Positions 90-63,384 of a stretch of DNA of 64,000 nucleotides are shown piece by piece. The notes under the pieces are model-generated. The model did not search any database and was not told the origin of the DNA. It was given only the letters and a program-made list of their open reading frames with translations. The translations under genes were made by a program, and so were the position numbers. Numbering within the stretch: the first letter of the stretch is position 1; the number at the start of each line of letters is the position of its first letter. Source of the DNA: Argopecten irradians (taxonomy: Eukaryota; Mollusca; Bivalvia; Pectinida; Pectinidae); contig NC_091142.1 in the NCBI RefSeq assembly GCF_041381155.1, positions 31,237,528 to 31,301,527 on the forward strand. The letters run 5' to 3'.

Positions 90-3000
90 TTAACCTGGGT
101 TTAAATCACCACAAGGGAGGGCAATGGAAACACCAAGAACGTTAAGTAAGTACTGAATAAACCTGACCTCTTCCAGATTTTGATAGCAGCCCATCTTGAA
201 TCTGATAACATCTCCCCACAACACCAACTGTTTACAGCCCGGACATGTTCCTTCAATGGGCAGGATTTCCTTGGTCTGTTGTTTGGACTGAGACAGAAAC
301 TTCCGAGACAGACACTCGATGTGAGAGGTCATAGAACACTTCGGGTGTACACAGTTCACTGTGGTGTCGTCAACCTGCAATATACAGTTTAATTACATTT
401 ATGTCGTATGGGCATATCCATTGAGCAATTCTACAAGAGAAAGTTTCAGAACTCACTGGTAAAACTTAACTATACAAACAAACGTCGATTCCATGAGCAT
501 ATTTATGCGCTTTCAGCTTCGTAGCACACATTTGCAAAATCATAAATTTTCTATATTTGTCCAAAAAAATGTTTGGGAAAAGATAATGCATGTGTTCGGG
601 GTTAGGTTTAGATACATTTTAGCGTCACCAAAATCCATGAAAGGTATCTGCCATCAGTCTTGTAACCTAACAAAACAGACGTATGAAAAACAGAACGTTC
701 TGAAAATACGCTCTTGGTATCGCACATCTACGTATTACCCTATCCGCGATGGTTCAGGGGCTATAATCTATCCTCAATATGGGCCTACGCGTTGTGATGT
801 CTAATATGTTTGGCTTTCTAATAATACAATATATAGTATTAAATTGTCCATGTTCAAGGGCTGTAATGCGGTAAACAGCTTATGTGCAATAGACACCAAA
901 TGTAAGTCGATCTAATGTGACATGCAACGTTTAATGCAGGATTCGTAGGAAACCTGGCTTATTTGGACTTCAAACACTCGATATTATGTCAACGTTTCCA
1001 CGTTATAATCTATACTTTTAAAGAATATGATACAGAAATATCACAACATCCAGATGGGGAATGCATGTTTTTCTTTAGTCCCATTCCAAACGATACAGCG
1101 TAACAGCCGACAATAATGATTACATGTAACTTGGATACTTTAAACACATAAATATTCAATTCCCTTTGTTTAATACGTTGATATTTTCAGTAATTTGAGA
1201 ACAAGAGTGTTAAATCAGTGGCTACCATGGTAACTATAACTAAAACGTATAATTATTTATGTGTCATATATATGTCCTCAAACTGCAATGCTCCCCCGAG
1301 TCTGCGCACACACAAAGCAGCAGCTAGATATAGAAACGTTACAGTTACAGAACACAGTCACGATTTATGTTGGAGATAACCATGGGTACCGTATTCAGAT
1401 TAGGTAAGTAGAACATTTGGTATGGGTAACATGGTTAGTACCTTATAATATAAATCACTTTCACAAGAAATACTCTATGGCTTATAATTAACTTTCTTTG
1501 TTCTCATACTAAATCTGGCTTTCTGATTGGCCAATTCTTTTTGTATATAAAGAAAAAAAAAATTGTTATGCAGATTCACAGTAGCAGTTTGCAAACACTC
1601 TTTCCATACCTTGAAGAAATTTTAAAAAGTGACATCAATGCTCAAATAAATTGAAGATAAATGGTTTCTTTCTGTATATGAAATATTACAGTAACATTCA
1701 AAATATTACTTTGTGTTATCTGTTTATAAGTCATTTTTAAAACGCGTGTCATATACTTTTCATTAACCTAAACGTCAATTTGCAAAGACGTAAGTCCGTG
1801 CAGAGTATCCCATTATAAGATGTACATTGATGCTGTTGTGAATTAGGTTATGTACAAAAACATCCCATTTGGTACCAAAATGATGACAAAACAAATGTAT
1901 TTCGTACTACGATACACAGCTGGCCTTGTCATAGTCTAACTACCAGCTATGTACTCACTCTCTAAATGCCTATTTAATATGCTGACATTTACAGCCATCA
2001 CACAATTACAGCAATTACAATTGTAAAATTAAAAACAAGAGAGGAAATATATACAATGATATAAAGACTCGTGAACAAATGCACTGACATAATGGCATAC
2101 GGTACACAAAGATAGTGGTAACGACCAATTATACGCATTACACGCTGTTAAACGTGTATTCAGAAGAATTACACATTGTTTCATGCATTTACAGTATTGT
2201 CAATGAAACTATATCTGATAGAGCACGTAGATAAATTGTTTCCACTGAATGATTTGGTACTTTTACCATACAACATGAATAATCAAGTGAAACATGAAGA
2301 TGTAAATAGCAAAATATCAACATATATTCAATTTTAAAATAATATGATACGCATAATCTGATTACTAGTTGTTTCACAAACATTATGCCTATATCACATT
2401 TTTATTGCTTGTACAAAGCGTTCATTTACGTTTCTTGTTTTAAGGGTTTTGTTTTAAAATCCAAGTAACGTATGAACTTGTTTTATATTTATTATATATG
2501 TATATTGCAGTACTGTTAGCTGTGATCTACCTGGTCAACGTGACCTCCGGGTACCCTTATCAGTCCCTTTCAGGATTCAGCTCACGGAGCCAAGCCGACA
2601 GTACAGCATGCAACACCTACAGATTATATCAACGAATTCTTCAGAGGCAAACCACGCCACTGGTTGACGATTTCATAATTACCCTGTTCCGTCAAAGTCC
2701 GATAACTAGGGATATTCTTCGTACAGAAACGACCGCAGTATGCAGGTATGGCTGATTAAAACCTGTCAGAGGTAAATTAAAACCCAACAGCTCACGACCG
2801 CAGTATGCAGGTGACTGATGAGCGGTGATTTAAAACGTCAATTTTACATCATCAAGATGTTGATTGGGTGATGTAATGATTAAGCCATTCTCCTTTCATA
2901 TGACCGTCCAAGAATAAATCCCGTCACGAACGTGAAAAGATCAGGGGTCAACCTTATCAGGAGTGTTTTCTCTGGATACTCCGGTTTCCTCCCACTGTAT

Positions 3001-15000: not shown

Positions 15001-18000
15001 ATTTTCATAAAAGTCACTAACCTCATTTAATATTTCAACCTGATCAGTGATAAATTCGCCATTTTCCTTCTGGATGTTAGGAATTATTTTAGAAGTAAAG
15101 TTTCTGTTTTCTAGGTTAAGAAAATAAGAAGTTGGTTTTTCTCCCTCATGAACCCATTTTGCTTTAGATCTAATGAGACTTCCTCTTATCCTTTTTGCTC
15201 TACTATCCTCTAACTCTTTCTTCAGACGAGTTAATTTTACAAGATCAATATTAGTTTGTGCTTCTAGTATCAAAATTTCCTTCTTTAACTTTTCTTCTTG
15301 TTGACTTCTTTGTTTTTTCTTGAATGATGCATAAGAGATAGATTTTCCTCTAATTTCCATTAGTAATGTTTCAAGGAATAATTGATCATTTATCATAAAC
15401 TGTAAGTCATCCTCAGGAATGTTTTCAATTGTGTCAATATTATAAACAGGTAAACAATATTGTCGTTTTGTATCTTTGATGCAAGTTTTTTACTATTTCA
15501 GTATAAGATGTATCATTGAGTAGGGAATTATTTAATTTCCATAGTCCTTTTCCTTTCCTAAATTCATTTACTGACAGGGATATTATAGGGGTAGAATGAT
15601 CAGATTTGTAGCCTGGTTCAATTTTTGATTTATTTACACTTGATAGCAAAGATTCAGAAACAAGAAAAAAGTCCAATCTGGCTTGTTTTACAGGATTAAC
15701 CCTACGCCAAGTATATCGTCTAATATCAGGGTGGTGTTCTCTAAAAATATCAATAAGATTATTGTTTTCTATTATTTCAAGAACCTTATTCCTCGCTGCA
15801 GGATTATTTACATGTTTATAGTTACTATCATAGTCTACCGACGGGTTCAAAACAAGATTAAAATCACCACAAATTATAATATGGTCATTGTTAAAATCAT
15901 GTATGGTTTCTTGTATTACATCATAAAAATCTGGAGTATCTTGATTCGGGCCATAGAGTGATATTAGAGTTGTCCTTAACCCATCAATATTAATATCAAG
16001 CGCAAGACAATTGCCATTTCTATCCTTTTTCTCTCTGTGTACCTTAGATTCAAAATTGTTATTTAGTAGGATGGCAACACCACGCGAGTTTGATTTAAAA
16101 GAGCTAAAGTACGCATTATATCCCCATTCATTTCTCAAAAAGTCTTCATGTTCCTGTGTGAAATGGGTATCTTGTAAACAAAAAATACTGTATCTTTTAT
16201 CTTTCAAATATGAGAAAACGTCTTTTCTTTTGAACTTCTCACCTAAACCCTGACAATTTGCTGATAGAACATTGATTTCATTCATAGGTTATGAGATAAC
16301 CTGAAAAAAAATATATCAAACGAGAGAAAGCGGCAGTGACATCCAACACAGGGCAAGTAACGGAAACAAACGGGAGAGAAAGAATAAGAAGAAGAAAAAG
16401 GAAAATAAAGAAAACATGTAAAAAGTTTTCATTTAGGTCAAATCAATCAAAAGACAACCATTCAACTTACACGCCCAGTCTAGGAACAGTTGCATTGTGC
16501 GAATATATAGATTTCTAATATGCACTTCAGTACTTGCTATGAAATAAAACCGGAAATTGATAAAAACCGGAAGTACTATACTAAATGTAGACTATAATGC
16601 CTGTTGGTTTTGTCCGGAAAATAACATACCATGATCAACCACTAATAAATGTGGTGAATTGTTATTTCAGTAATATCTTTATATATGTAACATAGAAATA
16701 TGCAATACAGTTATAAGAATTAATAGAATATAAAGTATTTGGAGGTAAAGAACCCCATTAGAAAAACGAGTTAAAAAATCTGGGGTATTTTACTCACCTT
16801 ACACTATGGAATAATTTTAGATCCCAAACATCGAAAAAAAAAAAAAAAAAAAAAAAAAAAACACTTTCACGTACGCACTTACAAATGAAGAGATTTCCTA
16901 TTATTAACACAAGAAAAACCACAAAGATTGAAGTTAATATGTGATCGGTAGTCCAGGAATGATCCCCGAAATGTCCTCTACCGATATCGGAAATGGATAG
17001 CTCAACCAACTCGCGTTCGCGTGAAGTTTTCATCTCTGAGTAAGAATTCCTCAGTTAGTGGCGTGTCATATAGAAGTCTACGTTTCCTACCATCCTTGAG
17101 AATAACGAAAAGTTTTCCATCGATACTGTACGAGTTTTGCACACAGTTGACATGATACGCTTCCTTTAGTCTGTCCTGGTTATATTTGGTGAGGTCTTCA
17201 AATACAGAAATTCCCGTCCCTTTCAGGATCTTCCTTGCTCTCAAGATTTCGTGCTTTTTAGTCCTATGGGTAAACTTTACAATCACATTTCGTTTTTTTC
17301 CCGTGCACAAATTTTCCCAGTCTATGCGTTATGTCTATTTCATCACCACGTAATGCAACCTTCAATTTGGAGTTCACCAGAGATACTACTTTCTCCTTAC
17401 ATTCCTGAACAGTCTCTTTCTCTGATGTATCTTCTAGGCCGAAAATTCTGATTGAGTTCTTCCGTCCATGCTGTTCTAGGTCATTATATTTCTCTTCAGA
17501 CCATTGTTGGGATTTCTGTAGTTCGGTGTAGCGATCCTGTAACTCTGTCACAGTTTGCACCGGTAGAACTTGAGAAGAAGTTCAAAATGTGTTTTCAAGA
17601 TGGCGGCTGTGGCGGCCATTTTGAATTTCGGATCGACCCGAAAAATAACAACACTTTGTCGGGACCATGGCAGGATCATTTCATGCAAGTTTCAGCCAAA
17701 ACGCACTGGTAGAACTTGAGAAGAAGTTCAAAATGTGAAAAGTTAACGCACGGCGGACGCGGCGGACGGCGGACGGCGGACGACGCAGACGAAACATGAC
17801 GACTATAGGTCATCCTGACCCTTCGGGTCAGATGACCTAAAAAGTCAAAAGACATTCTTTGGTAACGTTATAAGCCTTTGAGTAGATATGTAGATACATG
17901 TAAGTCATTGGACTTTCTGTAGTAAAACCATTAAATTGTCTACAGAGAGTAAGGGAACTTTACCTGTAACGGTTTGAAATAAACTGAACATCTCTGTTGA

Positions 18001-19587
18001 CTGGGGATTAGATTTTATATAGAGTGAGGAATATTTACCTGTAAACATTTGAAACAAACTGAACATCTCTACTGACTGGGGATTAGATTTTCTATAGAGT
18101 GAGGAATATTTACCAGTAAACGTTTGAAACAAACTGAACATCTCTGTTGACTGGTGATTAGATTTTCTATAGAGTGAGGAATATTTACCTGTAAACGTTT
18201 GAAACAAACTGAACATCTCTGCTGACTGGGAAGCGCCAGCTGACCGATATCATCTCCCTCTAAATCCTGTTTTACTGGACTGCTGCTGTTAGAACCTTTA
18301 GGATTCTTTTTACCTTTAGTCTTGTTGTCTTTAGCCATTGTTTTTATCTTAACAGGACCATAAGTTATAGGCATGTGTATAGGGGGACGGCAATCCGGAG
18401 AGAAATCCTGTACATAGTTCTGTTTGAGCCAGCGAATCGTTAATGCAAAACGATTCCATGGACCAAGACGAAGCATCTCCGACACAATCCGAAAACGATA
18501 CAAGAAAGGTGTTTCCTTTTTCTTCTTTCCAACCAGGTGTCTAAGTCGACGGGACTTCTCTGGATTCTGCCATGCCCACTCAAACTAAGGATGACAAACA
18601 AAAAACAGTCAATTTCCTTGTGTGGATCATACCATTAAATAACATTTCTTGGAATAAAAAAAAATTACCCATATCACATGCATTCTGAAACTTTGTTTTG
18701 ACTTTACAAAGTCATATATTGTTTTCAATTTTCAATCATTTGAAACTCTGACCAACGACCAAAAATCTTATAAAAACTGTTCCAGTAAAATATCTGCCAG
18801 CACAGTTAGTAATAGTCTTCAATACCACATGACATTTGTATACATATCACAGAGTTATCTGCCCTTGTAGTAGTTATGAATTGTGTAAATTCTCACTGTT
18901 CACAAAACAATGATGTAACAATTGATAACTACCTCCAAGGGAGATAACTTTGTAATATTCAAATGAGTAGATAGGATTAGATAACCTTAGCTTCATGGAT
19001 ATCAAGATTTTACATTGTGCTTCACCAAAAAAATTAATCACAGGGCCTTAGATCATGTGTTTTCCCCACCATCTCACCCTGTGTAATGTGGTCATATGTC
19101 AAGGTGAAGACACACATCCATAATATATATACATTTTTTTAAAGAAGCTTTCAAATTATAATGTACATACCCGCAGTGCAGAGATGTCATTTGGGAATCC
19201 ATGAATAATCAGAACCATTTCCCTGGAAAATAACACAATCTTACAATATGTATGACACATATATGGTTTTAAAGTAATCAAACTAATCAACCTATTTGAA
19301 TGGTCAAATAGAGACAGTCAATCCTTATTCTATATATTTAATTGACCTTTCCTATTTGCTGTAGAGAACAGTGACTCCAGTTCAAACGTTTGATAACAAT
19401 AATTCCGTTACCATGGTCCGCGCCCGTGTGTCCTCCACGCCCCTCCAGCATGCTTGCCTTTGTTGTGTTGCTGTATTCTGCGGTTTGGGTTGACTGTATA
19501 CCCGATGTATGTTCTTCCTTTAAACTTTGGATTGACGTTATACAAGAGGTACACTCCAAAGAATCTCTCAATGGCCTGATCTGCCAT
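90..19587 (-). CDS. SLX1: SLX1 structure-specific endonuclease subunit (GIY-YIG + C-terminal RING), four exons, complete
   Basis: Exons, in coding order: 19587-19412, 19222-19171, 18584-18189, 374-90. All junctions are GT/AG and phases agree; predicted length is 302 residues (human SLX1 has 275). Residues ~9-38 carry the GIY-YIG signature: G-V-Y at 11-13, Y-I-G at 27-29 and the RR pair at 36-37, whose second Arg aligns with the catalytic one. Glu78 in the F-E-W motif aligns with the metal-binding Glu. The C-terminal zinc-binding domain has C200/C203 at the end of exon 3, then C216, H218, C221, H226, C229, C252 and C255 in exon 4, ending with the family motif LWGD-I. In known biology SLX1 is the nuclease of the SLX1-SLX4 complex, which cuts Holliday junctions and flaps in the nucleus. 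The ATG at 19587 directly precedes the conserved RFFGVYLL. The last ~25 residues match the family poorly. A 75-bp repeat sits on the exon-3 donor. Confidence 0.93.
1382..6747 (+). CDS. Uncharacterised small secreted cysteine-containing protein, five exons, nested in SLX1 intron 3
   Basis: Proposed exons: 1382-1403, 2511-2745, 3370-3515, 4798-4939, 6585-6747. All introns are GT...AG and phases (1, 2, 1, 2) join without a stop, giving 235 residues. The first ~21 residues form a convincing signal peptide only when exons 1 and 2 are joined: a short basic start, hydrophobic [10 protein letters not shown], then a cleavage-like TSG. The mature part has eight cysteines, spread over exons 2-5, enough for four disulphides, and no membrane segment. 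I recognise no family. The gene lies wholly within the last intron of SLX1, on the opposite strand. A 19-nt copy of the exon-2 donor lies 65 bp downstream of it. The phase agreement and signal peptide make a real gene likely; the function is unknown. Confidence 0.72.
2729..2812 (+). repeat. Two-copy direct repeat of an exon-2 splice donor
   Basis: The 19 nt at 2729-2747, covering the last 17 coding bases of exon 2 and the donor GT, recur exactly at 2794-2812 inside intron 2. Both copies read TATGCAG|GT, so a second donor lies 65 bp downstream of the first. Confidence 0.75.
2940..3010 (+). repeat. SINE body fragment
   Basis: Contains a stretch around 2968-3000 (GATACTCCGGTTTCCTCCCA) typical of the body of tRNA-derived SINEs in molluscs. 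No tRNA head is joined to it here, so it is a fragment in intron 2 of the nested gene. Confidence 0.4.
3823..3930 (+). mobile_element. tRNA-derived SINE head
   Basis: Starts with a tRNA-like segment (GGTCGCGGTGGCGAGTAGTT) and has a B-box-like GAGTTCGAATCCC about 60 nt downstream, the two parts of a Pol III internal promoter. It is degenerate and lies in intron 3 of the nested secreted gene. A related head fragment occurs at 26540-26575. Confidence 0.55.
4051..4180. mobile_element. Short MITE with ~22-bp terminal inverted repeats
   Basis: The left end reads GGGCCCGATTTCTCGAAACA; the right end is its near-perfect reverse complement (TTTCGAGAAATCGGGGCC). The interior is AT-rich with CTTAAGT motifs in both orientations and has no coding potential. 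It looks like a non-autonomous DNA transposon in an intron. Confidence 0.7.
5330..5514. repeat. MITE-related dispersed repeat
   Basis: About 180 bp here closely match 50835-51040 (shared core CATAGTGCCACGGA, then AAGTAAAATTAGAAGCTC and AAGAAAAATACTAA). The copy at 50702-51062 has inverted ends, so this is a truncated member of the same MITE family. Confidence 0.6.
5515..6152 (+). mobile_element. Pearl-like non-autonomous Helitron-type element with internal ~120-bp repeats
   Basis: Begins with GAGGCCAGAGGGCC and ends with a strong hairpin (AGCTCACTGGCCC / GGACCAGTTGAGCT) followed by AAT, preceded by a GGACGGAAGGATGACGGAC tract. Between them a unit of ~120 bp (TAGCGATTTA...CCCCTATT...GGTCAGAGCC) is repeated about three times. 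Hairpin end plus internal tandem core is the organisation known for bivalve pearl/CvA elements; the assignment is by architecture only. It lies in intron 4 of the nested secreted gene. Confidence 0.55.
6341..6506. mobile_element. MITE with ~30-bp imperfect inverted ends
   Basis: The left end GGCTCCAATTCCACGAACAT is an imperfect inverted match to the right end ATGTTCTTGAAACTGGGGCC, and the similarity runs on inward through AGTTAA-TTAAGG. It resembles the 4051-4180 element in type. It ends ~78 bp before exon 5 of the nested gene. Confidence 0.55.
6904..6909 (+). terminator. Polyadenylation signal of the nested secreted gene
   Basis: AATAAA 157 nt after the stop at 6747, giving a plausible short 3' UTR. 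Confidence 0.55.
7179..7325. repeat. 31-bp minisatellite, about 4 copies
   Basis: Unit CTTCATACTTTTACTGGGG plus TAAACTCTAA(T/G)A is repeated about four times, just downstream of the nested gene's poly(A) signal. No coding content. Confidence 0.8.
7392..9307 (+). mobile_element. Pearl-like element, composite
   Basis: Starts ACAAGAGGCCCAGAGGGC and ends with a GGACGGACGGACGACGG tract and the hairpin AGCTCACCTTGGTCC / GGACCAAGGTGAGCT, with ~120-150-bp internal repeats at 7590-7990 (CCATTGCATTATG recurs). The middle (about 8000-9170) is unrelated sequence, including a long palindrome at 8017, and is probably a later insertion. No gene seen. Confidence 0.45.
8017..8165. repeat. Long near-perfect palindrome (~71-bp arms)
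   Basis: The left arm beginning ATTGAACAGTGTTTTGATTG is the reverse complement of the right arm ending CACTGTTCAAT with only a few differences. The centre is GCGC-GTTA-GCGC, so the RNA or single strand would fold into a ~71-bp hairpin. It may be the fused inverted ends of a MITE. Confidence 0.85.
9529..10410 (+). mobile_element. Pearl-like element, left part (split by a LINE), ~147-bp internal units
   Basis: Starts ACAAGAGGCCAAAGGGCC and contains about five units of ~140-150 bp, each with AACTTGAGAAGAAGTTCAAA, AAGATGGCGGCTGTGGCGG and CAGGATCATTTCATGCAAG. It is interrupted at 10410 by a LINE and resumes at 17555. Apparent plus-strand reading frames here are only the repeat read in different frames. 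Confidence 0.65.
11465..16285 (-). pseudogene. LINE ORF2 remnant: AP-type endonuclease, reverse transcriptase, C-terminal domain
   Basis: Starts at an ATG at 16285. The endonuclease (16285-15440) shows SANCQGL, LQDTH (Asp where L1 elements usually have Glu), GDFN and SDHSTP. The reverse transcriptase (15396-13993) shows [40 protein letters not shown] and YADDTG. Thumb and C-terminal parts follow at 13942-13217 and 12203-11465, the latter with a C-x2-C...H...C knuckle ([18 protein letters not shown]). At least three frame changes, plus a MITE insertion at 12208-13212, show it is dead. Confidence 0.9.
12208..13212. mobile_element. 1-kb non-autonomous transposon with TTAA duplication inside the LINE
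   Basis: Flanked by TTAA at 12204-12207 and 13213-13216. The ends are inverted: GGATGTACACCTCTGAG on the left against GGATGTATTCTTCTGAG read from the right. With one TTAA removed the LINE protein reads straight through. TTAA targeting is known for piggyBac and Kolobok elements; which one applies is open. No transposase is visible. Confidence 0.85.
17002..17554 (-). pseudogene. LINE ORF1 remnant (coiled coil + RRM-like nucleic-acid-binding domain)
   Basis: The 5' end is cut off inside a Gln/Glu-rich coiled coil. The segment around [10 protein letters not shown] is the typical start of the RRM of L1-type ORF1 proteins, and the C-terminal half carries [16 protein letters not shown] and [15 protein letters not shown]-type residues. 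One reading-frame change near 17300 separates the two halves. Family role: RNA chaperone of the retrotransposition particle. It is not functional here. Confidence 0.8.
17555..17837 (+). mobile_element. Pearl-like element, right part after the LINE
   Basis: Continues the same ~147-bp unit after the LINE, then a CGGCGGACGGCGGACG tract and a terminal hairpin (GGTCATCCTGACCC / GGGTCAGATGACC). The first 15 bases duplicate 10396-10410, marking the LINE target site. Confidence 0.65.
17936..18235 (-). repeat. 75-bp tandem repeat (4 units) spanning the SLX1 exon-3/intron-3 junction
   Basis: Units start at 75-bp spacing (shared marker TGAACATCTCT at 17985, 18060, 18135, 18210 on the plus strand). On the minus strand each unit holds the last ~39 nt of SLX1 exon 3 (the CSVCFKRL codons), the donor, and ~36 nt of intron. 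The exon-adjacent unit reads TTACAG|GTAAAT and the next TTACTG|GTAAAT. The most distal unit is the most diverged. The 75-bp length keeps the reading frame. Confidence 0.92.
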
Positions 19588-46103: not shown

Positions 46104-46444
46104 CTCGAACTTAATCTGTGACAATGGATCAAAGAAGTAATATCAACGGTTTTAATCAAGGTAACGCTTGATAAATAACAAACACACATATAACCAATAA
46201 TCTTCATTTGAGTAGAATCTATTTCGTTGAAAATAAACGATTCAAAAATACGTCAGGTTATTTAAAACTGATTTTGAAAAAAATTAATACCACTTACAAT
46301 GATGGAATATAAAGAGGAAAGTCAACTATGAATGATGTACCGTTTTAAATATAACGAACAATACAATATATCATAGGAAATGGATAACAAATTTATTTCA
46401 TTAAAGTGTTCTATGGTGAAAATAGACTAGAGTACAATGGATAG

Positions 46445-48082: not shown

Positions 48083-48153
48083 GACTGTGGTTATCACTAC
48101 CTAGCTGGTCAGTGATAAGGAACGTCTGGTCCGTCCACACCGCCACAGACACC

Positions 48154-51100
48154 ATGAAAGGTCCAATAGTATTCCTGCTTGTTGTACTATCTAGTGAGTT
48201 AACCATCTAATACTTTAGATTGATATGATTATAAAAAGAGGAACTTACATGATGACCTTTGTAAAATGTATAACCTGATATTGATAATTCGTTATGCCAA
48301 GAGTCTTACGTAATTATCTAGTGAGTTTTACAACCAAATATTTTAGATTAATACGATTATAGTTAAATGAACTTACATGATTTTCTTTTTAAAATGTATT
48401 ACCCGATATATGCTAAGAGTTTTGCGTAATTATCTAATGAGATAACCATCAAATACCTAGATTAATATGATTATAAATAGAGGAACTTACATGTTTTTCT
48501 TTGTAAAATGTATTATCCGATATCATGTATCGATATGCCTAGAGTTTTACGTAATTATGTAGTGAGCTTCACCATGAAATGCGTCATCGTTAGATTGAAA
48601 TATTTCGTTTTTAAATGAATAAGATTATAGATAGAGGATCGTACATGATTGGCTTGTATTATGTATTACACGTAATCAATCATTTGATATGCCAAAAACT
48701 ATTAATATTTATTTATAATTTGTTTCCCAAATTTAAAAGAACATCTGAATAGAGACGACACAAGGATTAGTAAACAATATAGGTACAATGTTTCGTAGTG
48801 AGATATATTTTATATTTATTTTTTCTTGTTTCGTAGTTAACTTGTTGATATATATATGATTTTCTATACGTCCCAGGTTGTTTATAATGAAATGTATGAT
48901 ATGTCCTCAGTGATTGCCATAGATGGGCGCCAGAGAAGACTGAGTTGGTATTGTTCCAGTATAAGACATAGAGCCTGTTATCCCTACGGGGAGAACCTAT
49001 TGTGTGGCTCTGACAATTATACATACTACAACAAGTAAGTACAACCGGATGTAGCCTAACTTTTACCGGAAGTATTCGGAACCATACATGTACGTGTAGG
49101 CCAACTCGTCGAAGACCTAGAGGATCCACCAGCTGATAGACGGAAGAGTTTCCACAGCTAATCGAGTTGATCTCTGCATTAATCATACATGAGTTGAGGA
49201 AATTTTGTAAGGATTGTCTCAAATGAAATCCGTTACCATGTCGACATAGAAATTTCATTTACGATTTTAGTGATTTTTTTATATAAGAATGTCAAACGCA
49301 TTGTACTGTCAAAAGTTTAATAACAATTTATTAAAAAGATTTTAAAAATGCCTAAACTTTGCAAGTTAAGCAAATGCAACCTTAAATTATCGGACATCTT
49401 GTATATAGATTTCTATATAAAATAATTTCAGGTGCGATTTCTCCAAGTCTCACTGTATGGACACTCATTTACACGTGGCTCACGAAGGTTCGTGTAATGG
49501 TGAGAGTCACCTGGGTAGTAACCTGACCCAGGGGGAGCTGTTACTCCTACAGTTTATGTGTGACGACATCACAGGACACAGGTGTGATGAGAACTTCGAC
49601 GCAGTGTGTGGCTCCAACGGCGTCTCCTACTTCAACGAGTAAGTCAGTCCATGGTACCATCTCTCTGTTTCAAACATCTACTGGTTTCTCAATGTTTAAA
49701 GCAGGGTTTTAACGTACTTAAGGAAGGATACAAGCATTGTTCATTCTACCCCATTGCATAATCGTCAAAGACGACTGAATTTGAAATCTTAATTTCATGA
49801 CTTCCTAAATCACAATACTTTCATTTCACAACTATTTGTCAATGATAGTTTGAGATCGATTCATTTTAACTGTTTACTATAACCACCAAAAACTCCTGTT
49901 CCCGCCCCAGAGAAATGTTCTGAAAACTTACATATATAGATATAAATATTACACATTGTCTGAGTCGTGTTCGCAATCTGGCGGTTGGGAACGTCATTTT
50001 ACTTGGATTTCAATTTCTGGGTAGATTACATGTATTAAAGATAGATGCAGTTCATTGTTTGAACAGGTGTGAGGGTGACCAAATGAAACTACTGTAAATA
50101 ACTTTATTTTTGCATTATACAAAATATGAAAATGCGAATAATTGTTTACACATTTTACATGAATTCGTGATTGGAAGTGTGATCGCGAACTTATATATAC
50201 CTGAATATGGTGATGAAGATGCGCAATATTGTATACGTGAAAATGCATGGGTTTACAATAAATGTGAAGGGTAATGTTTCCGTACAAATTCGTGAAATTA
50301 TAGTTTTATGTAAATATGTGATTGATTTCTCAGGTTATCGGAAGTATTAGGTCTTCGTTTTGAGTGAATTTGATTCATGAGCACCAACTAAAACAAATAA
50401 TAGTGATGGTCTATTTACAATATTCTATACGCTGCATCTGTTTCTTACAAGAGTAGGTAAATTTAACATTAGTCATGATCATTTTAATACATTTAATCAA
50501 TTTTATATTTTGACTTTCAATATTGTATTCATTTGATACTTAAAATTTTAATATTTATTTTCATTTTATATTTAGTATGCCATTTTTTTTTTACATATTT
50601 TTACATTTAGAATCTTAATATTTGTACTTCATTTTGTATTTATGATTTCAATATTGTATTCATTTTATATTTAGAATTTTGATGTTTGTATTCATGATAT
50701 TTGCTCCACCGCCGACAGAGCGTAAATGATATTCATCATTTGAACAAAAAATGGTATTTAATCGTGAATATACATGCCTAATCGACACAAAAAATAACAT
50801 AAAATAATTCATTTCGCCTTTGGTGCATGCGCAATCATTACTTCATTCCATATAAGATATAGTGCCACGGAATTTTTTCGGGATGCAATTAATTATTTTT
50901 CGTATATTTAACTTTAAGTAAAATTAGAAGCTCTAACTTTTCAATGGTGGTAATAGTGTAAAGTAAGTAACTTTTGTAACTGAAGAAAAATACTAAATCG
51001 TCTGCTCCTGTTTTTGATAGTGAAAAAATACCATTTGTCAGCGGTGGAGCATCTTTAACATTAAATTTTGTATTCATGTTATATTAAGGATTTTAATACT

Positions 51101-54100: not shown

Positions 54101-55036
54101 GTCTATAATGTGACCGGTTGTATGATGGTTTTTGCCTGTCGTATAATGTGACCGGTGGGCTGTGCTGTATGATGGTTTTTGCCTGTCAATATAATGTGAC
54201 CGGATGGGCTGTGCTGTATGATGGTTTTTGCCTGTCTGTATAATGTGACCGAATAGGCTTTGCTGTATGATGGTTTTTGCCTGTCTGTATAATGTGACCG
54301 GGTAGGCTGTGCTGTATGATGGTTTTTGCCTGTCTGTATAATGTGACCGGGTAGGCTGTGCTGTATGATGGTTTTTGCCTGTCTGTATTATGTGACCGGG
54401 TAGGCTGTGCTGTATGATGGTTTTTGCCTGTCTGTGTTATGTGACCGGGTAGGCTGTGCTGTATGATGGTTTTTGCCTGTCTGTATAATGTGACCGGGTA
54501 GGCTGTGCTGTATGATGGTTTTTGCCTGTCTGTGTTATGTGACCGGGTAGGCTGTGCTGTATGATGGTTTTTGCCTGTCTGTATAATGTGACCGGGTAGG
54601 CTGTGCTGTATGATGGTTTTTGACAGTCTGTATAATGTGACCGGGTAGGCTGTGCTGTATGATGGTTTTTGACAGTATATTGCAGTGAGATAACATTATA
54701 AAGCAGTAAACAGTTGCCATTATTACAAAAAAGATCACAATATAAACGCACCATTAAAACATGTACAAGCACTGCATAGCATACACAGGAAGATGTCCTT
54801 AAAAGCATCCAAATATCGAACGTGTCGAAATCTTATTGTCTCCTTTTACAATACAGTATATAGTGTGCATTCACACGAAATGAAACACTGAAGTTAGTTT
54901 AATACTTGAGCCTGATTTCTATTACACTGTGATACTATGACAACTTATTCTGTTTGTTTTAAGGTGTGAATACGAGCAGACGAGATGTATGCACCCAGAT
55001 CTCACCCTGGCACACCGGGGACCATGTGCGGCTTGA
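48154..55036 (+). CDS. Secreted two-domain Kazal-type serine protease inhibitor, four exons
   Basis: Exons: 48154-48193, 48911-49036, 49432-49638, 54963-55036, giving 148 residues. Phases 1, 2, 2 agree at every junction. Exon 1 gives a signal peptide (MKGPIVFLLVVLS). Domain 1 has the Kazal core LLCGSDNYTYYNKC and domain 2 VCGSNGVSYFNEC, each with the six expected cysteines. Both domains are split by an intron at the same place, between Asn-(Lys/Glu) and the fourth Cys, pointing to internal duplication. By the Kazal rule (second residue after Cys2) the P1 residues would be Pro in domain 1 and Glu in domain 2, so trypsin inhibition is unlikely. Kazal proteins in bivalves act in defence and digestive-protease control. 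The exon-1 donor is repeated four times in intron 1, and intron 3 (5.3 kb) holds a 49-bp minisatellite. Confidence 0.88.
48183..48690 (+). repeat. ~116-127-bp tandem repeat (4 units) starting at the Kazal exon-1 splice donor
   Basis: The donor context TATCTA|GTGAGT (48194) recurs as TATCTA|GTGAGT (48321), TATCTAATGAGA (48437, GT lost) and TATGTA|GTGAGC (48562). Between them units share AGATTAATA-GATTATA, GAACTTACATGAT, TTGTAAAATGTATTA and GAGTTTTACGTAATTAT. About nine exon-1 bases are included in the copied segment. Confidence 0.85.
50702..51062. mobile_element. MITE with ~20-bp inverted ends in Kazal intron 3
   Basis: The left end GCTCCACCGCCGACAGAG is inverted at the right end (TTTGTCAGCGGTGGAGCATC). 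Related ends occur at 61165-61200 (GATGCTTCACGGCCGACAAA) and a body copy at 5330. No coding content. Confidence 0.7.
51063..53529. other. Intron sequence without confident features
   Basis: AT-rich interior of Kazal intron 3. A short segment at 53208-53248 after a TTACAG acceptor reads DECKARYAHNVSN then stop, in a phase compatible with exon 3; it might be an alternative last exon but spoils the Kazal cysteine spacing. Nothing else was identified. Confidence 0.4.
53530..54675. repeat. 49-bp minisatellite, ~23 copies, in Kazal intron 3
   Basis: Unit GTGACCGGGTAGGCTGTGCT plus GTATGATGGTTTTTGCCTGTC and TGTATAAT, spaced 49 bp in the regular part, with diverged longer units at the left edge (53540-53760). 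It does not touch an exon, ending ~290 bp before exon 4. The minus-strand reading frame through it is a repeat artefact. Confidence 0.95.
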
Positions 55037-55066
55037 GTGGTCTGCTAGATCTCATGACTCTAACAG

Positions 55067-55072
55067 AATAAA
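55067..55072 (+). terminator. Kazal gene polyadenylation signal
   Basis: AATAAA 31 nt after the stop at 55036, only ~150 nt before the next gene's start codon. Confidence 0.5.
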
Positions 55073-55218
55073 ATATACCAATATGAGCTTGTATTGTGTT
55101 TATGGAAATGTCTCAATTTCTCCTCTACGAAATGATATTCTGCTACATCATCGTTTAAAATTTATCGGTCTCAAAAAAAACTTCAAATTGTAAGAATAAG
55201 AACGACGTAGCTTGCTAG

Positions 55219-58200
55219 ATGGACTCATTACAACGTAGTATCATGGTTTTATTTTCCGTGACCACAGTTCGATTCTCAGTGCATGTACCGACTAGAGTCG
55301 TAATCTACCAGAGTTGTACGACAGGTGTCGGGGATAATGGAGAGAATGAAATCCATTCCAGAACCCGTGAGTCTATTGTTCAGGAGCCTTCGTACTACAT
55401 GTCGTTTAAGTATATTGAAATGGTTCTTTTTACTTTCAAAATTTCAAAATATCTAAATAATAAAGTAGATGTTTAAAGATGCTATATCGCCGAAAATTTA
55501 TATTTTTAAAACTGGAAAAGATGAGTTAGTGTTTTCCTTCAGTGAAAAAAGACTTTCTTTACACTTTATTGAAAGGTTCGTACTTAACTTCAGAATCAAG
55601 TTATTTTCAAAAAAAAATATTGCATTCCGAAAAAAATCGTTGATACTTTGACTTTCTGATTGGCAGGTTCTTTTTCTTCGTATACTATGAAGAAAAAATC
55701 TGATAATGGCACGAAAACCCGACGATGTTGTCATGACGTCACAATAGAGACGTCGACTTTGCGTATTGATTTAGAAACAAATAATCCTTTGGAAAATCAA
55801 TGGAATCGTACGTTTAAACGTATTTTGTGTTATAAAGTAGTCTGAAAAATTAATTATCAGCATTGATGTCACTAATTTTTAACTTCATCGGGTTATGAAA
55901 TAAATTTTGTTTGCAAACTTTTGTGAGAATCCGCGATGCTATTCTTTCATACCCCGATGACGTTAAAAATAGTGACAAGACTTTCCGAGGGTTTTGTCAT
56001 CCCAAAAATAGATTATCCCTTTCTACCTCGTCAACAGAAATATCTGCACTGCCGATGAGGGTAAGAATTCTCTGTCTTACCAAGGACAAGACAGCCTGGA
56101 CTCGTAGACCATATTCACGTGATAATACGAAAGTTGTAAAACGTCATATGCAAATAAGCATTAACCCGTGCAATCCAATTGAACGTGCTCCAAGCGCATG
56201 CTGAACTTTGGAAGTCCCGATGCCTAAACACATTTCGTTGATATTTATCCGACGAAAGACAAATTAAATGGTTTTGATACAATATATGTTAATATTTCTT
56301 TGACGTATGATATTTCAAAGCGATTTAAAGATCTCCTAGTTGATACAATTAATAAACAAATATTTGTCGTTTTTGGAATTGCGTACATTTGTTGTTTTAA
56401 ATATTTTTTTCGGGAAATTATTAGTCATAAATCTCCTCTTCGGGTAGAGATTCCCCTGTCCAACCCTCAAGGTAAGAAAAGATCTTATTTGAAAGTATTT
56501 TTCTCTATTAAATATGTTAAATTTAAAAAATAAAATAGATATTTTGTTGGTGCCATGACGTCAAGAGTTGCATGGTTAGGCATGCAATACAGCCTCGGGC
56601 GACATGAGTCTATTGCCTGGGAAACCAGTATTACACCCGTAGGTATGAGGGAATAAAACCTTATTTTCACAATCCTCGAATTTCAACGTTTTACAACCGC
56701 AGAAAAATAGCAACCACTTTCTAACCGGATCCCGGAACTAGGCCTTCTAATTTAGTCCATATAACACCGAGAGCTCGGGAGGAAGGTTCAATTATACTAC
56801 TGATCAGTGTGGAGCACATAGCTAATAATAACAACCACTTTCTAACCGGATCCCGGAACTAGGCCCTCTAATTTAGTCCATATAACACCGAGAGCTCGGG
56901 AGGAAGGATAACAGAAAGCACACTTGCTGATGGGACTATAAAAAACATGGAGGAAACAAGCACTTGGCTGAGGGGACATGGAAACTGGTGAAGTCGGAAA
57001 TTTCGAGGAGTATTGTGAATGTTTAGGTACGTTGTATGTATCAGCTTTGTATATTCTTACTTTATCATCACAGCCTGAATTCATGTTGTAATTTATTCAT
57101 TTAGTTACAAAGACAATGTGGTTTATATTACTACACATTCAAATTTCCTGTGTTTTAGTCAGTGTTTCATGTTTTCACTAAGTAGTAATTTTGGCTCGGA
57201 TAGTCTGTATGTATGTAGAATTTCTGGGTTACGCGGGACTTTTCTTTTATTTATGAAGCTTGACACTAAAATGTTCAGTAGGTTTATACTATTCGAAAGA
57301 GTGGTGGTGTTATAATAATAATGCGGTGGAGCAATGTCCGGGGGAAAAGCATATGGTCAATGATACCGGCTTTGGCAAGCAGAATTTTAAAATTTGAAAC
57401 TGAATCACATCTTACATCTTTTTATTTTAGTGCTAACTGTAATGTATAGTTAAAAGACCCGAAATACTATTAAATTGGGTATTTAGTCAAAATTATCAAT
57501 TAGTAATTTATGTCAACTACAAATATGAAGTGGCAAAACCAAAAGACTGTCGTAATCTAGGATATTCACATGTAGTATCTATTCATTTCAGTCAAATGTT
57601 TAACGTTGCTTTCTGTTCAAGAATGTGTTTTTTGAAAAGACTCTTACATCAAATAAGACAACGTATTTTATATATACCACAAATGGAATTTGTTTTAGGT
57701 ATGCCCTGATATATACCACAAATGACTTTTATTTAGGTATCATCCAGGTATGTATATATCTCTACCACAAATGACTTTTTGTTTTAGGTATATCCTGGTA
57801 TGTACAACAAATGACTTTTAGTTTTAGGTATGGGTATGACAACATATGAGGTATGTTGTACACATACATTTGTTATGTCTGGGTATGTACAACAATTTGG
57901 TTTTAGGTATGTCCTGGGTATGTACAACATATGACTTTTGGTTTTAGGTATGTCCTGGGTATGTACAACAAATGACTTTTGGTTTTTAGGTATGTCCTGG
58001 GTATGTACAACAAATGACTTTGTTTTAGGTATGTCTGGTAGTAAACATATGATTTTTTAGGTATTCCTGTATGTACAACAAATGACTTTGGTTTTAGGTA
58101 TGTCCTGGGTATGTACAACAATGACGTTGGTTTTAGGTATGTCCTGGTATGTACAACAAATGACTTTTGGTTTTAGGTATGTCCTGGGTATGTACAACAA

Positions 58201-61200
58201 ATGACTTTGTTTAGGTATTCCTGGTATGTACAACAAATGACTTTTGGTTTTAGGTATGTCCTGGGTATGTACAACAAATGACTTTTGGTTTTAGGTATGT
58301 CCTGGGTATGTACAACAAATGACTTTTGGTTTTAGGTATGTCCTGGGTATGTACAACATATGACTTTTGGTTTTAGGTATGTCCTAGGTATGTACAACAA
58401 ATGACTTTTGGTTTTAGGTATGTCCTGGGTATGTACAACAAATGACTTTTGGTTTTAGGTATGTCCTGGGTATGTACAACATATGACGTTTGGTTTTAGG
58501 TATGTCCTGGGTATGTACAACAAATGACGTTTGGTTTTAGGTATGTCCTGGGTATGTACAACAAATGACTTTTGGTTTTAGGTATGTCCTGGGTATGTAC
58601 AACAAATGACTTTTGGTTTTAGGTATGTCCTGGGTATGTACAACATATGACTTTTTGGTTTTAGGTATGTCCTGGGTATGTACAACAAATGACTTTTGGT
58701 TTTAGGTATGTCCTGGGTATGTACAACAAATGACTTTTGGTTTTAGGTATGTCCTGGGTATGTACAACAAATGACTTTTGGTTTTAGGTATGTCCTGGGT
58801 ATGTACAACAAATGACTTTTGGTTTTAGGTATGTCCTGGGTATGTACAACAAATGACTTTTGGTTTTAGGTATGTCCTGGGTATGTACAACATATGACTT
58901 TTTGGTTTTAGGTATGTCCTAGGTATGTACAACAAATGACGTTTGGTTTTAGGTATGTACTGGGTATGTACAAACAAATGACGTTTGGTTTTAGGTATGT
59001 ACTGGGTATGTACAACAAATGACTTTTGGTTTTAGGTATGTCCTGGGTATGTACAACATATGACGTTTGGTTTTAGGTATGTCCTGGGTATGTACAACAT
59101 ATGACTTTTGGTTTTAGGTATGTCCTGGGTATGTACAACAAATGACTTTTGGTTTTAGGTATGTCCTGGGTATGTACAACAAAATGACTTTTGGTTTTAG
59201 GTATGTCCTGGGTATGTACAACAAATGACTTTTGGTTTTAGGTATGTCCTGGGTATGTACAACATATGACGTTTGGTTTTAGGTATGTCCTGGGTATGTA
59301 CAACAAATGACTTTTGGTTTTAGGTATGTCCTGGGTATGTACAACATATGACGTTTGGTTTTAGGTATGTCCTGGGTATGTACAACAAATGACTTTTGGT
59401 TTTAGGTATGTCCTAGGTATGTACAACAAATGACTTTTGGTTTTAGGTATGTCCTGGGTATGTACAACATATGACTTTTGGTTTTAGGTATGTCCTGGGT
59501 ATGTACAACAAATGACGTTTGGTTTTAGGTATATCCTAGGTATGTACAACAAATGACCTTTAGTTTTAGGTATGTCCTGGGTATGTACAACAAATGACGT
59601 TTGGTTTTAGGTATATCCTAGGTATGTACAACAAATGACGTTTGGTTTTAGGTATGTCCTGGGTATGTACAACAAATGACTTTTGGTTTTAGGTATGTCC
59701 TGGGTATGTACAACAAATGACTTTTGGTTTTAGGTATATCCTAGGTATGTACAACAAATGACGTTTGGTTTAAGGTATATCCTAGGTATGTACAAGAAAT
59801 GACCTTTAGTTTTAGGTATGTCCTGGGTATGTACAACAAATGACTTTTGGTTTTAGGTATGTCCTAGGTATGTACAACAAATGACTTTTAGTTTTAGGTA
59901 TGTCCTGGGTATGTACAACAAATGACTTTTGGTTTTAGGTATGTCCTGGGTATGTACAACAAATGACTTTTGGTTTTAGGTATGTCCTGGGTATGTACAA
60001 CATATGACTTTTGGTTTTAGGTATGTCCTGGGTATGTACAACAAATGACTTTTGGTTTTAGGTATGTCTGGGTATGTCAACAATGACTTTGGTTTTAGGT
60101 ATGTCCTGGTATGTACAACAAATGACTTTTGGTTTTAGGTATGTCCTGGTATGTACAACAATGACTTTGGTTTTAGTATGTCCTGGTATGTACAACAAAT
60201 GACTTTGGTTTTAGGTATTCCTGGGTATGTACAACAATGACTTTTGGTTTTAGGTATGTCCTGGGTATGTACAACATATGACTTTTGGTTTTAGGTATGT
60301 CCTGGGTATGTACAACAAATGACTTTTGGTTTTAGGTATGTCCTGGGTATGTACAACAAATGACTTTTGGTTTTAGGTATGTCCTAGGGTATGTACAACA
60401 AATGACTTTTGGTTTTAGGTATGTCCTGGGTATGTACAACAAATGACTTTTGGTTTTAGGTATATCCTAGGTATGTACAACAAATGACTTTTGGTTTTAG
60501 GTATATCCTGGGTAAAGAGATTACTGAGCCCGTTCGTCTGCCCCTGTCAGACAATCAGTGTTAACGGAGATTGCTGGTCTATACTCACATCTTGTAGAAT
60601 CAAACAGACGGACATCCAACTGACCGTTGGTCAAGAATGCACGTGGTTGACTTTTGACGGGCGAAAGATTCGAGTAAGTTACTGCAATTTAGCTTAAATC
60701 TAATTGACATATGTAGGCCCTTTTGAAGATGTGTGTTGAAATATTCAATAAGAACTGGCATTTTTATTAGATGTTCTCAATAAAATTTTGTATTACATTC
60801 CCATTATGTCATTCATCCCTAAAATTCCATATGGACTAGTCCAGTCTTTGATTTAGAAGAGCCCAAATGTGTCTTCAGTGGTAGATGAGTTTAATAGTAC
60901 TTAATACATTGTACCACTTTCATCCCCTCCTTCTTGGTAAGGTAGGGGGTGTTTTGTCGAGAAAGGTAAATGACAATGGAATATTTACTCATTATTATCC
61001 ATATTTATTATTAAGGTTTTGTCTATTCATTCCTAGTCTACAGGATTTTGATATAGAAAGCATATTTATTAAAGTATATTTCCAATATTATATAAAACAA
61101 TTGTTTCTGTAGTGTTCGCTGTAGATATAAATGATATTGTTTTAGAATATGCACAACTCTTGTATTAAAGATGCTTCACGGCCGACAAATGATATTAAAC

Positions 61201-63384
61201 AATATTTATCATTTGGACAGTAATTGATGTTTATATTTCTAATTAATTTTTGTTATTGAAGAAAATTTCGGATTCATCTGCTGCTAATAAATAAAAGTCA
61301 TCATTGGTTGACGATACAGAACCTTAAAGAAGGACGAATAATCATTCTGATGAATATATACACTGTTTTAAAGTTGTGGACATTTTTTCAATAAAGTCAA
61401 CCTGGTACCAACTGAATGTTAGAACAATAAAATTTATTTATTGGGATTTTATTATGAAAATTAAGTGAGGCAGACTAAAACCCTCTATATCCATAAGAAC
61501 AATTTGATACCAACAATTATGAATAACATTCTTTAACTACATTGTTTAACGAATTTTTCAACAACAGAAACAAAAAAAGCTTTCTTTATCACTTAAAATA
61601 TGTGAGTATAGCTTACGACACAACATAACACTCTGACCTGTCATTCATCTGTAATCATTTCAGACATCAGTTGACCTGGAGGATGGTCGACTTACTCTCC
61701 GGCAGTTAGACCCGCCCCATATCAACATCACACGAGAATTCACCAGTAACACCATGGTAATGGTATGTATTCACATTTACACATATCAAGGAAGAAACAA
61801 TGTTGTATGAGACACGTCGGTGACACAAGTCATGAAACTATTTGTTATAAAGTGACTTAAATGATTTCTACTTACACTGACTGCATACATATTATTTCTA
61901 ACTTAAAATCACCACTTATGAAATAGATAAAAACAAATCCTCTTGTAGAACAGATAGGGATAATTCTACATTTTGTGTTTCCTTATTTCACTGCTTGATT
62001 AAACTGGTCTTGATCCACACTCTGCTGTACGATACAAACTCTAATTTATTTCGTTACATAATAGACATTGTATGTTTGACATCATTATCTAGTTTCAAAA
62101 GTATTACTAAACCGGATTTTTGTGAGCTATGCCGAGGTTTTTAGTTTCTGCAAAAAAAAAAAATATTATCATACACCATTTAATAAGAAAAATATAATTC
62201 TTCATTTAAGCTTCGATGTCACTATTTTGTTACCTTCATAGGGGTATGAAAGAAACTTTGTTTGCAAACTGTGTGAGTTCTCACAAAAAAATTGCGAACA
62301 AAGATGATTTTATAACCCGATGAAGTTTAAATCATCAATGCTTGTAATTAATTTTTCTGACTATAAAACCATAAAACTAAAAACACGTTTAAACGTATGA
62401 TTCCATTAAATTTCCAATTGATTTTTTTCTAAATCAATACGCAATACGAAGTTAAAAAATAGTGACATCAATGCATATAATTAATTTTTCAGACTACTTG
62501 ATAACAAGAAATACATGTACGCTTAAACGTACTATTCCATTGATTTTCTAATGAATTATTTATTCTGAAACAATACGCAACATCGACGTCTCTATTGTGA
62601 CGTCATGATAACGTCGGATTTTCGCACCATTCTTGGATTTATTTATTTTTTTTTTTCTTCACAAGGTATGAAGAAAAAGTATCCGCCAATCAGAAAGTCT
62701 TATTTACTATGTAAACAAATGAAAATTAATTATAGTTGTATTAAGGAAACGTATCTGTCAATCAGAAAGTCGGAATTAGTATGAAAACAAATAAAAATAA
62801 TCATTCAATGATTGTACATTTTATTTCATTACCATGCTGAATCTTCTACTTGTGATAGAGTTCATGTTGTAAACTATGGTACATTTGTATTTCATTTTTA
62901 CATGTGGTAGAATACATATTGTAAACCACGTTATATTCGGCGCGAGGTACAAATTGACACAAAAATCATTGCATAGACGAAATACAATTTGTAAATAATT
63001 ATACAAATATATTTAAAATCATTGGTCGCGAATTAATGTATTTTCGAACATGTTTAAAATTAACGAAGAAGGCGTAACAACACCATGGTTTACTCTATCG
63101 AGAAGTCTCCCTAATTCTGAGATTAATATTGTAAAGATCAAATATTTCGTTGTAGAATGGAATAGTTCAAAAGAAACACAAGGAGCGGCATTTTATTTAA
63201 AACGGTTCGATCTGTTCTATCATTGCAGACACTGGAAGTTCACAATGTCAAGGCCAGACGCATATATAAGAAACAAGACAACACCACATCCCGATGGTCA
63301 CGGACCCTACTGTTTCTATCCTTCTGCCTATCGACAGCTTCCGTAGCCTGGTATTGGAAGCAATTACGGCTTGCCTGGCTCTGA
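55219..63384 (+). CDS. Uncharacterised small membrane or secreted protein with C-terminal hydrophobic segment, four exons
   Basis: Proposed exons: 55219-55366, 60501-60673, 61664-61762, 63229-63384, giving 191 residues. Phases (1, 0, 0) agree and no stop is met. The N-terminus (MDSLQRSIMVLFSVTTV) could be a signal peptide. Exon 2 has a Cys-rich stretch (FVCPCQTISVNGDCW, then SC and EC). Exon 3 has alternating hydrophobic residues with an N-glycosylation site (NIT). Exon 4 ends with TLLFLSFCLSTASVAWYW, a likely membrane helix or GPI-type tail, and a short basic end. An Ig-like or other beta-sandwich ectodomain is possible but no family is recognised. Exons 2-4 are firmer than exon 1, which was chosen by phase and signal-like sequence. 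The exon-2 acceptor is the source of the 57.7-60.5 kb array. Confidence 0.6.
55640..56670. mobile_element. MITE-like dispersed repeat cluster in intron 1
   Basis: Contains TGACTTTCTGATTGGCAGG, GACGTCACAATAGAGACGTC, ATTGATTTAGAAACAAATAA and a GGCGACATGAG...ACCAGTATTACAC block. Inverted versions of several of these are at 62220-62720, and related blocks at 1500-1640, 29415-29915 and 35655-35830. A non-autonomous family scattered through introns; no gene. Confidence 0.5.
56711..56909 (+). repeat. Two-copy tandem duplication, 121-bp period
   Basis: CAACCACTTTCTAACCGGAT and the following ~60 nt (through GAGAGCTCGGGAGGAAGG) occur at 56711 and again at 56832, with one base difference noted. It lies within intron 1. 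Confidence 0.85.
57665..60510 (+). repeat. 41-bp minisatellite (~67 copies) of the intron-1/exon-2 acceptor
   Basis: Unit: GACTTTTGGTTTTAG|GTATGTCCTGGGTA plus TGTACAACAAAT. The last unit runs into exon 2 as TTTTGGTTTTAG|GTATATCCTGGGTA, so every unit copies the end of the intron, the AG acceptor and ~14 nt of exon 2. In most units the AG is followed directly by GTATGT, a donor-like sequence. Copies are near-identical in the centre (58240-60050) and degraded at the left edge. Clusters of single-base gaps occur at 58010-58210 and 60060-60240. Confidence 0.96.
62095..62720. mobile_element. MITE-like dispersed repeat, inverted relative to 55640
   Basis: Reads the 55640-56000 blocks in reverse order and orientation: TTTGCAAACT, CTCACAAAAAAATTGCGAAC, AACGTATGATTCCATT, GACGTCTCTATTGTGACGTC, then CCAATCAGAAAGTC. 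It shows internal duplication (62340-62480 and 62470-62590). Noncoding, in intron 3. Confidence 0.5.

What the first reader, a model, noticed from the sequence alone, without database searches (positions are those of the whole stretch)
1382..63384. Every confident spliced gene here carries a tandem repeat across one of its own splice junctions
SLX1 (75 bp x4, donor), the nested secreted gene (19 bp x2, donor), GPATCH3 (68 bp x~74, donor), the Kazal gene (~116-127 bp x4, donor) and the last gene (41 bp x~67, acceptor) all show it. Unit lengths and sequences differ, so this is not one mobile element; the common factor is location at an exon-intron boundary. It suggests a recurrent process that duplicates DNA at splice junctions (for example slippage between AG|GT motifs, or R-loop or repair events tied to splicing) and then expands by unequal exchange. 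Tandem duplication across AG|GT is a proposed route of intron birth; here it would be seen at existing introns, at stages from 2 to ~74 copies.
Basis: partly seen in the sequence, partly recalled or inferred. Interest (0 to 1): 0.9.

Follow-up and report, generated by a model that had tools for sequence, protein, structure and literature searches.

The report
Scallop minisatellites spanning splice junctions
In this bay-scallop genome some introns carry short DNA repeats that include the very edge of an exon, a kind of repeat reported before in amphioxus; they recur in unrelated genes, perhaps in modest excess, but not in every gene, and no special process at splice sites is shown.

Summary
The window is bay scallop (Argopecten irradians). 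Five multi-exon genes give 34 junctions. Strict junction-straddling arrays are real in three: SLX1 donor (75 bp), GPATCH3 donor (68 bp, about 74 copies), FABP-like acceptor (41 bp, about 64 copies). The Kazal repeat only touches its donor and the nested gene has one 19-bp copy, so 'every gene' is overstated. Nine (3.3%), in 6 of 17 loci, carry a straddling array, copies always on the intron side. Against shifted positions the excess depends on unit length: none clear for all units up to 600 bp (expected 6.2-10.7, P 0.14-0.74), but 2.4-2.7-fold for units up to 100 bp (expected 3.3-3.8, P 0.0015-0.016), a class I cut after seeing the data; adjusted over five cuts P is 0.0015-0.026. So junction arrays recur, probably in modest excess; a splicing-linked mechanism is not shown. 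The kind is known: amphioxus 'mirages' (PMC3087553). Most likely: ordinary minisatellite birth, tolerated at junctions because the exon-proximal site survives.

The parts
17959..18230 (-). SLX1 75-bp array across the exon-3 donor (exon 18584-18189, minus strand); 41 exonic + 34 intronic bases per unit; copies run into a 17.8-kb intron
18189..18584 (-). SLX1 exon 3, whose last 41 bases are the exon-anchored copy
   Evidence: (SLX1_C, GIY-YIG)
30374..35413 (+). GPATCH3 68-bp array across the exon-3 donor at 30420; about 74 periods, 71 GGAG|GTAGGT including the true donor
30246..30420 (+). GPATCH3 exon 3; model identical to the Argopecten irradians database protein
57896..60514 (+). 41-bp array across the exon-2 acceptor (60501) of a FABP-like gene (database name: sodium/calcium exchanger regulatory protein 1-like); units carry TTTTAG|GTATGT, readable as acceptor and as donor; degenerate copies start near 57680
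60501..60673 (+). FABP-like exon 2, first 14 bases shared with the array
48186..48560 (+). degenerate ~115-125 bp repeat touching the Kazal exon-1 donor (48193); only about 6-8 exonic bases shared (extent by eye)
   Evidence: lax settings only; not by the strict detector
2729..2812 (+). nested secreted-protein gene: 19-bp exact copy (2729-2747 and 2794-2812) across the exon-2 donor at 2745; not a tandem array

Best explanation
These are minisatellites that include an exon edge. The genome is dense in tandem arrays (about one per 3.5 kb in the sampled loci). A tandem duplication of some 40-100 bp can arise anywhere. Inside an exon it damages the protein and is lost; inside an intron it is neutral; across a junction it is also nearly neutral, because the copy that stays attached to the exon keeps its splice site and all extra copies fall into the intron. 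Unequal exchange or slippage then expands and homogenises the inner copies, while selection on the protein holds the exon-anchored edge copy, which drifts apart from the array. Splicing uses the exon-proximal site. Any short-unit excess at junctions may come from longer persistence (the exonic half is held by selection, so old duplications stay recognisable) or from a mild mutational bias. Shown: position, polarity, copy numbers, edge-copy divergence in GPATCH3, and use of the exon-proximal site in the database proteins. Inferred: the duplication mechanism, the neutrality, the expansion route, the cause of the excess.
For: Array density: 61 arrays (period 20-200) in 210,554 bases. All-unit junction rate near the intron rate: 9 of 270 against 6.2-10.7. 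Polarity: none of the 302 junctions tested has the copy on the exon side only, as selection on exons predicts; no straddling unit is longer than 96 bp, as expected if long units would duplicate much of an exon. Unit lengths vary (40, 41, 51, 53, 57, 60, 63, 68, 68, 74, 75, 96; 6 of 12 divisible by 3) and the exonic part is 14-47 bases in the 11 cases measured, with no common motif by eye. GPATCH3: inner units are near-identical while the exon copy differs from their consensus by 5 substitutions and 1 gap in 40 bases (read). Splice-motif columns are no more conserved than neighbouring ones. Exon-proximal use: P0001 and P0121 are 100% identical to the models, and P0125, an uninterrupted 291-aa ORF on a 1440-base contig (so probably from spliced RNA), joins SLX1 exons 3 and 4 with no extra copy. 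Amphioxus precedent: PMC3087553 (passages).
Against: For units up to 100 bp the junction excess is 2.4-2.7-fold outside the window (P 0.0015-0.016) and 3.3-3.7-fold with it, more than neutral tolerance alone predicts. The distance profile peaks at the junction (12 of 302 at 0, 5 of 302 at +40, 8 of 302 at +60). Leaving out the muscle myosin locus L054, which has duplicated exons, raises the excess (all units 0.9-1.9, short units 2.8-3.6). Donor-like motifs in array units exceed shuffles (11 of 61 against 4.75 +/- 1.9), although known junction arrays are in that count. The persistence idea was not tested.
Confidence: 0.6

Rival explanations
1. Junction hotspot: something tied to splicing, transcription or AG|GT motifs (R-loops, repair, slippage) creates tandem duplications preferentially at existing exon-intron boundaries, and these expand later.
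For: Short-unit excess outside the window, 9 against 3.3-3.8 expected, P 0.0015-0.026 after adjustment over five cuts; window 3 of 32; pooled short-unit 12 of 302 against 3.2-3.6; donor-like motif excess in array units.
Against: No clear excess for all units (P 0.14-0.74), and the short-unit cut is post hoc. Acceptors are hit as often as donors (6 and 6 of 12), and several boundaries lack AG|GT at the join (for example TTACAG|TTT in L048). No acceptor-motif excess in array units (21 of 61 against 17.7 +/- 2.6). Three of the nine lie in one gene (L045).
Confidence: 0.28
2. Selective retention: extra copies of a splice site are useful (back-up sites, isoforms, or stepwise removal of long introns), so arrays at junctions are kept.
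For: 71 GGAG|GTAGGT in the GPATCH3 array and 64 TAGGTATGT in the FABP-like intron; dual-use AGGT sites are used in human introns and such introns are enriched in tandem-repeat genes (PMC10809524, passages); by unit length and reading frame a second SLX1 donor would add 25 residues in frame.
Against: Splice-motif columns are no better conserved than the rest of the unit; unit lengths show no clear frame bias (6 of 12 divisible by 3); one contig of probable RNA origin shows only the exon-proximal SLX1 donor.
Confidence: 0.06
3. Assembly artefact: copy numbers or the arrays themselves are assembly errors.
For: Long arrays are error-prone, and the FABP-like exon 1 looks frame-disturbed against relatives.
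Against: Degenerate copy variants and a diverged exon-anchored copy are not what a simple error gives; short two- to five-copy cases recur in unrelated genes.
Confidence: 0.04

Closest known systems
[quoted passage not shown] 2010, PMC3087553, passages read; the Adh3 original it cites was not read)
   Same: Tandem units contain both exon edge and intron; donor or acceptor side; unit lengths vary (there 10-160 bp); many, not all, copies keep AG/GT signals; regular splicing is kept; edge copies escape homogenisation.
   Different: Scallop instead of cephalochordate; one array reaches about 74 copies; here a shifted-boundary test was made, with a modest short-unit excess that is not yet confirmed.
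Human internal tandem repeats at exon-intron boundaries in segmental duplications (PMC2812944, passages read)
   Same: Minisatellites at exon-intron boundaries that can alter splicing.
   Different: Those vary between recent paralogs and change transcripts; here conserved genes whose database proteins are unchanged.
Intron gain by tandem duplication of an AGGT-containing exon segment (Rogers model; potato and other cases discussed in PMC4974935, passages read)
   Same: Tandem duplication with splice signals inside the unit.
   Different: There a new intron is created; here the arrays sit at the edge of an intron and no new intron is shown.
Dual-specific AGGT splice sites in tandem repeats such as polyubiquitin (PMC10809524, passages read)
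   Same: The FABP-like units carry AG|GTATGT, which can in principle act as acceptor and donor.
   Different: Dual use is not shown here.

Membership tests
Amphioxus-type mirage | tandem units that span an exon-intron boundary | tested here: met
   3 window genes and 9 of 270 junctions elsewhere; Kazal and nested cases do not meet it strictly
Amphioxus-type mirage | found at 5' as well as 3' boundaries | tested here: met
   6 donors and 6 acceptors among the 12 strict cases
Amphioxus-type mirage | many, not all, copies keep AG/GT signals | tested here: met
   71 GGAG|GTAGGT in GPATCH3; the nearest copy of one L045 donor lacks GT
Amphioxus-type mirage | regular splicing is not disturbed | tested here: inconclusive
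   database proteins and one contig ORF use the exon-proximal site; no RNA reads available
Amphioxus-type mirage | length instability between haplotypes | not tested
   no second haplotype of these loci was compared; the GPATCH3 unit hit one array only
Introner or other dispersed intron-creating element | the same sequence at many unrelated loci | tested here: not met
   GPATCH3 unit only: 76 of 76 listed hits lie in the one array (that search warns that its counts are lower bounds); SLX1 and FABP-like units were not searched
Rogers-type intron gain | the intron is new in this lineage and derived from the duplicated exon segment | not tested
   no genomes of relatives could be searched for these loci
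Junction-hotspot process | arrays enriched at exon ends over shifted positions | tested here: inconclusive
   units up to 600 bp: fold 0.84-1.40, P 0.14-0.74; units up to 100 bp (post hoc): fold 2.37-2.72, P 0.0015-0.016

The most novel reading that the evidence does not exclude
Scallop splice junctions are a real 2-3-fold hotspot for short-unit tandem duplication, at donors and acceptors alike, giving a standing supply of introns edged by up to about 70 splice sites, including an array of 64 TAG|GTATGT units in the FABP-like intron that could be removed stepwise or could seed new exons and introns.
Probability: 0.27. Interest if true: 0.7.

Novelty: new member of a known kind. Interest (0 to 1): 0.4.

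Why it matters
It extends boundary-spanning minisatellites from amphioxus to a bivalve and gives a rate for them in one animal (9 of 270 junctions in a sample of 135 introns). It turns a striking window into a testable question: are young short-unit duplications more frequent at exon ends than inside introns? If yes, splice junctions would be a mutational hotspot with a direct bearing on intron birth. It also supplies natural constructs, one exon followed by some 70 good donors, for asking how a spliceosome picks the right site.

Tried and rejected
Naive base overlap as a null: about 20% of window positions lie in arrays against 3-4 of 34 junctions, which would look like depletion; rejected because large arrays dominate it. 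I used terminal-copy polarity with shifted positions instead.

First-pass exon picks from profile hits and HMM-only pairing were superseded by spliced alignment. Counts moved with the sample: 11 of 246 with the window and 9 myosin introns, 8 of 234 without the window (fold 1.5, P 0.17; fold 1.27-1.93, P 0.06-0.34 over 18 settings with units up to 400 bp), 9 of 270 finally.

Rows dropped: 3 CCT introns of L050 that duplicate L049 (101 to 98); myosin introns whose gap deviation exceeded 4 residues (number not printed); 2 unpaired window donors (34 to 32). Profile hits in C3:68.06 Mb, C2:32.47 Mb and C451, and the other myosin loci, were not used.

Motif scan of array units: modest donor excess, no clear acceptor excess.

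Literature: nine searches answered. From titles and abstract starts none listed boundary-spanning minisatellites in a mollusc; one paper, PMC3087553, held 'mirages', 'minisatellites', 'intron' and 'exon' together. Only passages of papers were read.
Full report
WHAT THE WINDOW IS. The window lies in an 845,758,899-base genome at G000:C9:31237528-31301527. My GPATCH3 model (545 aa) is 100% identical over its length to an Argopecten irradians database protein on a contig of 44,102,855 bases, the length of C9; so is the FABP-like model (158 aa, named 'sodium/calcium exchanger regulatory protein 1-like'). Five multi-exon genes were modelled: SLX1 (minus; exons 19587-19412, 19222-19171, 18584-18189, 374-168), a nested secreted gene (1382-1403, 2511-2745, 3370-3515, 4798-4939), GPATCH3 (25338-25692, 28679-29226, 30246-30420, 37026-37386, 38035-38233), a Kazal gene (48154-48193, 48911-49034, 49432-49638, 54964-55037) and a FABP-like gene (56978-57026, 60501-60673, 61664-61762, 63229-63384). 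Pfam supports SLX1, G-patch and Kazal; the nested and FABP-like proteins have no Pfam match, so the FABP label rests on the names and one Pfam label of its relatives.

CHECKING THE OBSERVATION. TRF gives 15 merged arrays of period 12 or more in the window. Three cover a junction: SLX1 donor, GPATCH3 donor, FABP-like acceptor. A strict detector (ungapped self-match straddling the boundary, score of at least 8 on either side and 20 in all, copy only on one side) finds the same three; one shuffled window gave nothing at 18 or more. The Kazal repeat begins within the last few exonic bases and is found only with laxer settings. The nested gene's repeat is one 19-bp copy, 65 bp away, not an array. 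So the strict count is 3 of 5 genes and 3 of the 32 paired junctions.

Gene loci outside the window were chosen by protein family, without regard to repeats: chaperonins (PF00118; stretches) and myosins (PF00063; seven of the loci listed there taken). Spliced alignment gave 98 chaperonin introns (101 less 3 duplicates) and 37 myosin introns. Straddling arrays with copies on the intron side only sit at 9 of 270 junctions: CCT8 acceptor (60 bp), CCT2 donor, CCT3 acceptor and two donors, CCT6 acceptor, TCP1 two acceptors, one myosin donor. No junction has the copy on the exon side only. Six of 17 loci have a straddling array among their mapped introns.

RESULT BY UNIT LENGTH. Control positions lie 60-200 bp, 60-400 bp or anywhere 60 bp or more inside the same introns. 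All units up to 600 bp: expected 6.43, 8.23, 10.66; fold 1.40 (95% CI 0.64-2.66), 1.09 (0.50-2.08), 0.84 (0.39-1.60); P 0.20, 0.44, 0.74. Units up to 200 bp: fold 1.63, 1.49, 1.34; P 0.11, 0.16, 0.24. Up to 120 bp: 2.04, 1.95, 2.00; P 0.036, 0.046, 0.040. Up to 100 bp: expected 3.30, 3.58, 3.80; fold 2.72 (1.25-5.17), 2.51 (1.15-4.77), 2.37 (1.08-4.49); P 0.007, 0.011, 0.016. With the window, 12 of 302: fold 1.12-1.82 for all units and 3.3-3.7 for units up to 100 bp. Shifting each boundary at random inside its own intron (4000 draws; pool used where an intron was too short) gives P 0.135, 0.046, 0.042, 0.0115, 0.0015 for cuts of 600, 400, 200, 120, 100 bp outside the window; the smallest P adjusted over these five cuts is 0.0015, or 0.026 when positions are drawn from the pool. 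The 100-bp cut is the customary upper size of minisatellite units (recalled), but I made it after seeing that all junction arrays were shorter. Long control units (about 146-174 bp in several loci) may belong to a dispersed repeat and would duplicate much of an exon at a junction, two reasons why they need not behave alike; neither was tested. My planned confirmation on new loci (note) could not be run.

ANATOMY AND MECHANISM. Units are 40-96 bp in the strict cases, with 14-47 exonic bases in the 11 measured. Copies often keep splice motifs: 71 GGAG|GTAGGT in GPATCH3 (true donor included), 64 TAGGTATGT in the FABP-like intron. In the GPATCH3 alignment the donor columns are 99-100% conserved, but so are nearly all other columns, so recent homogenisation explains the conservation. 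The exon-anchored copy has drifted from the array consensus (5 substitutions and a gap in 40 bases, read) while its protein segment is nearly unchanged in the 20 proteins aligned. The database proteins, and for SLX1 an uninterrupted ORF on a 1440-base contig of probable RNA origin, use the exon-proximal site. The simplest account is random tandem duplication, removal by selection inside exons, tolerance in introns and across junctions, and later unequal exchange. These steps are inferred. The short-unit excess, if it holds, needs either longer persistence of exon-anchored copies or a mutational bias.

KNOWN KIND. Ebner et al. [quoted passage not shown] The scallop cases meet the defining features that could be tested. 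Human minisatellites at exon-intron boundaries are described in PMC2812944 (passages), and dual-use AGGT sites in tandem repeats in PMC10809524 (passages).

VERDICT. A real, recurrent feature of an array-rich genome, of a known kind, not found for a mollusc in my searches. 'Every gene' is wrong; a modest junction excess of short-unit arrays is likely enough to deserve the genome-wide test; a splicing-linked process is unproven.

Noticed in passing
window 56958-57026: FABP-like exon 1: the N-terminus differs from three other scallops and lacks their GTWKLxxSENF segment, which another frame just upstream seems to encode by eye; a frame disturbance in the gene or the assembly.
   Followed up: partly
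window 63229-63384: The FABP-like protein ends in a hydrophobic, membrane-anchor-like tail, seen also in its three scallop relatives and unusual for a FABP (recalled).
   Followed up: partly
window 41929-42750 and 44055-46142, minus strand: A 695-aa open frame with Mab-21 domains and, beside it, a near-identical copy of only its C-terminal part (by eye).
   Followed up: no
window 11465-16288, minus strand: Long ORFs inside the 17.8-kb SLX1 intron look like a non-LTR retrotransposon (endonuclease and reverse transcriptase motifs, recognised by eye).
   Followed up: no
window 9590-10412 and about 17560-17735: Sequence of the 146-bp array unit recurs elsewhere in the same SLX1 intron, so some arrays here may be of a dispersed repeat; units of 146-174 bp occur in several sampled loci.
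   Followed up: no
L045: The CCT3 gene alone has three junction-straddling arrays (two donors, one acceptor) in 12 mapped introns.
   Followed up: partly
L049, L050, L011, L012: CCT5 exons occur twice on contig C4 and again on small contig C451, perhaps an alternate haplotype.
   Followed up: no
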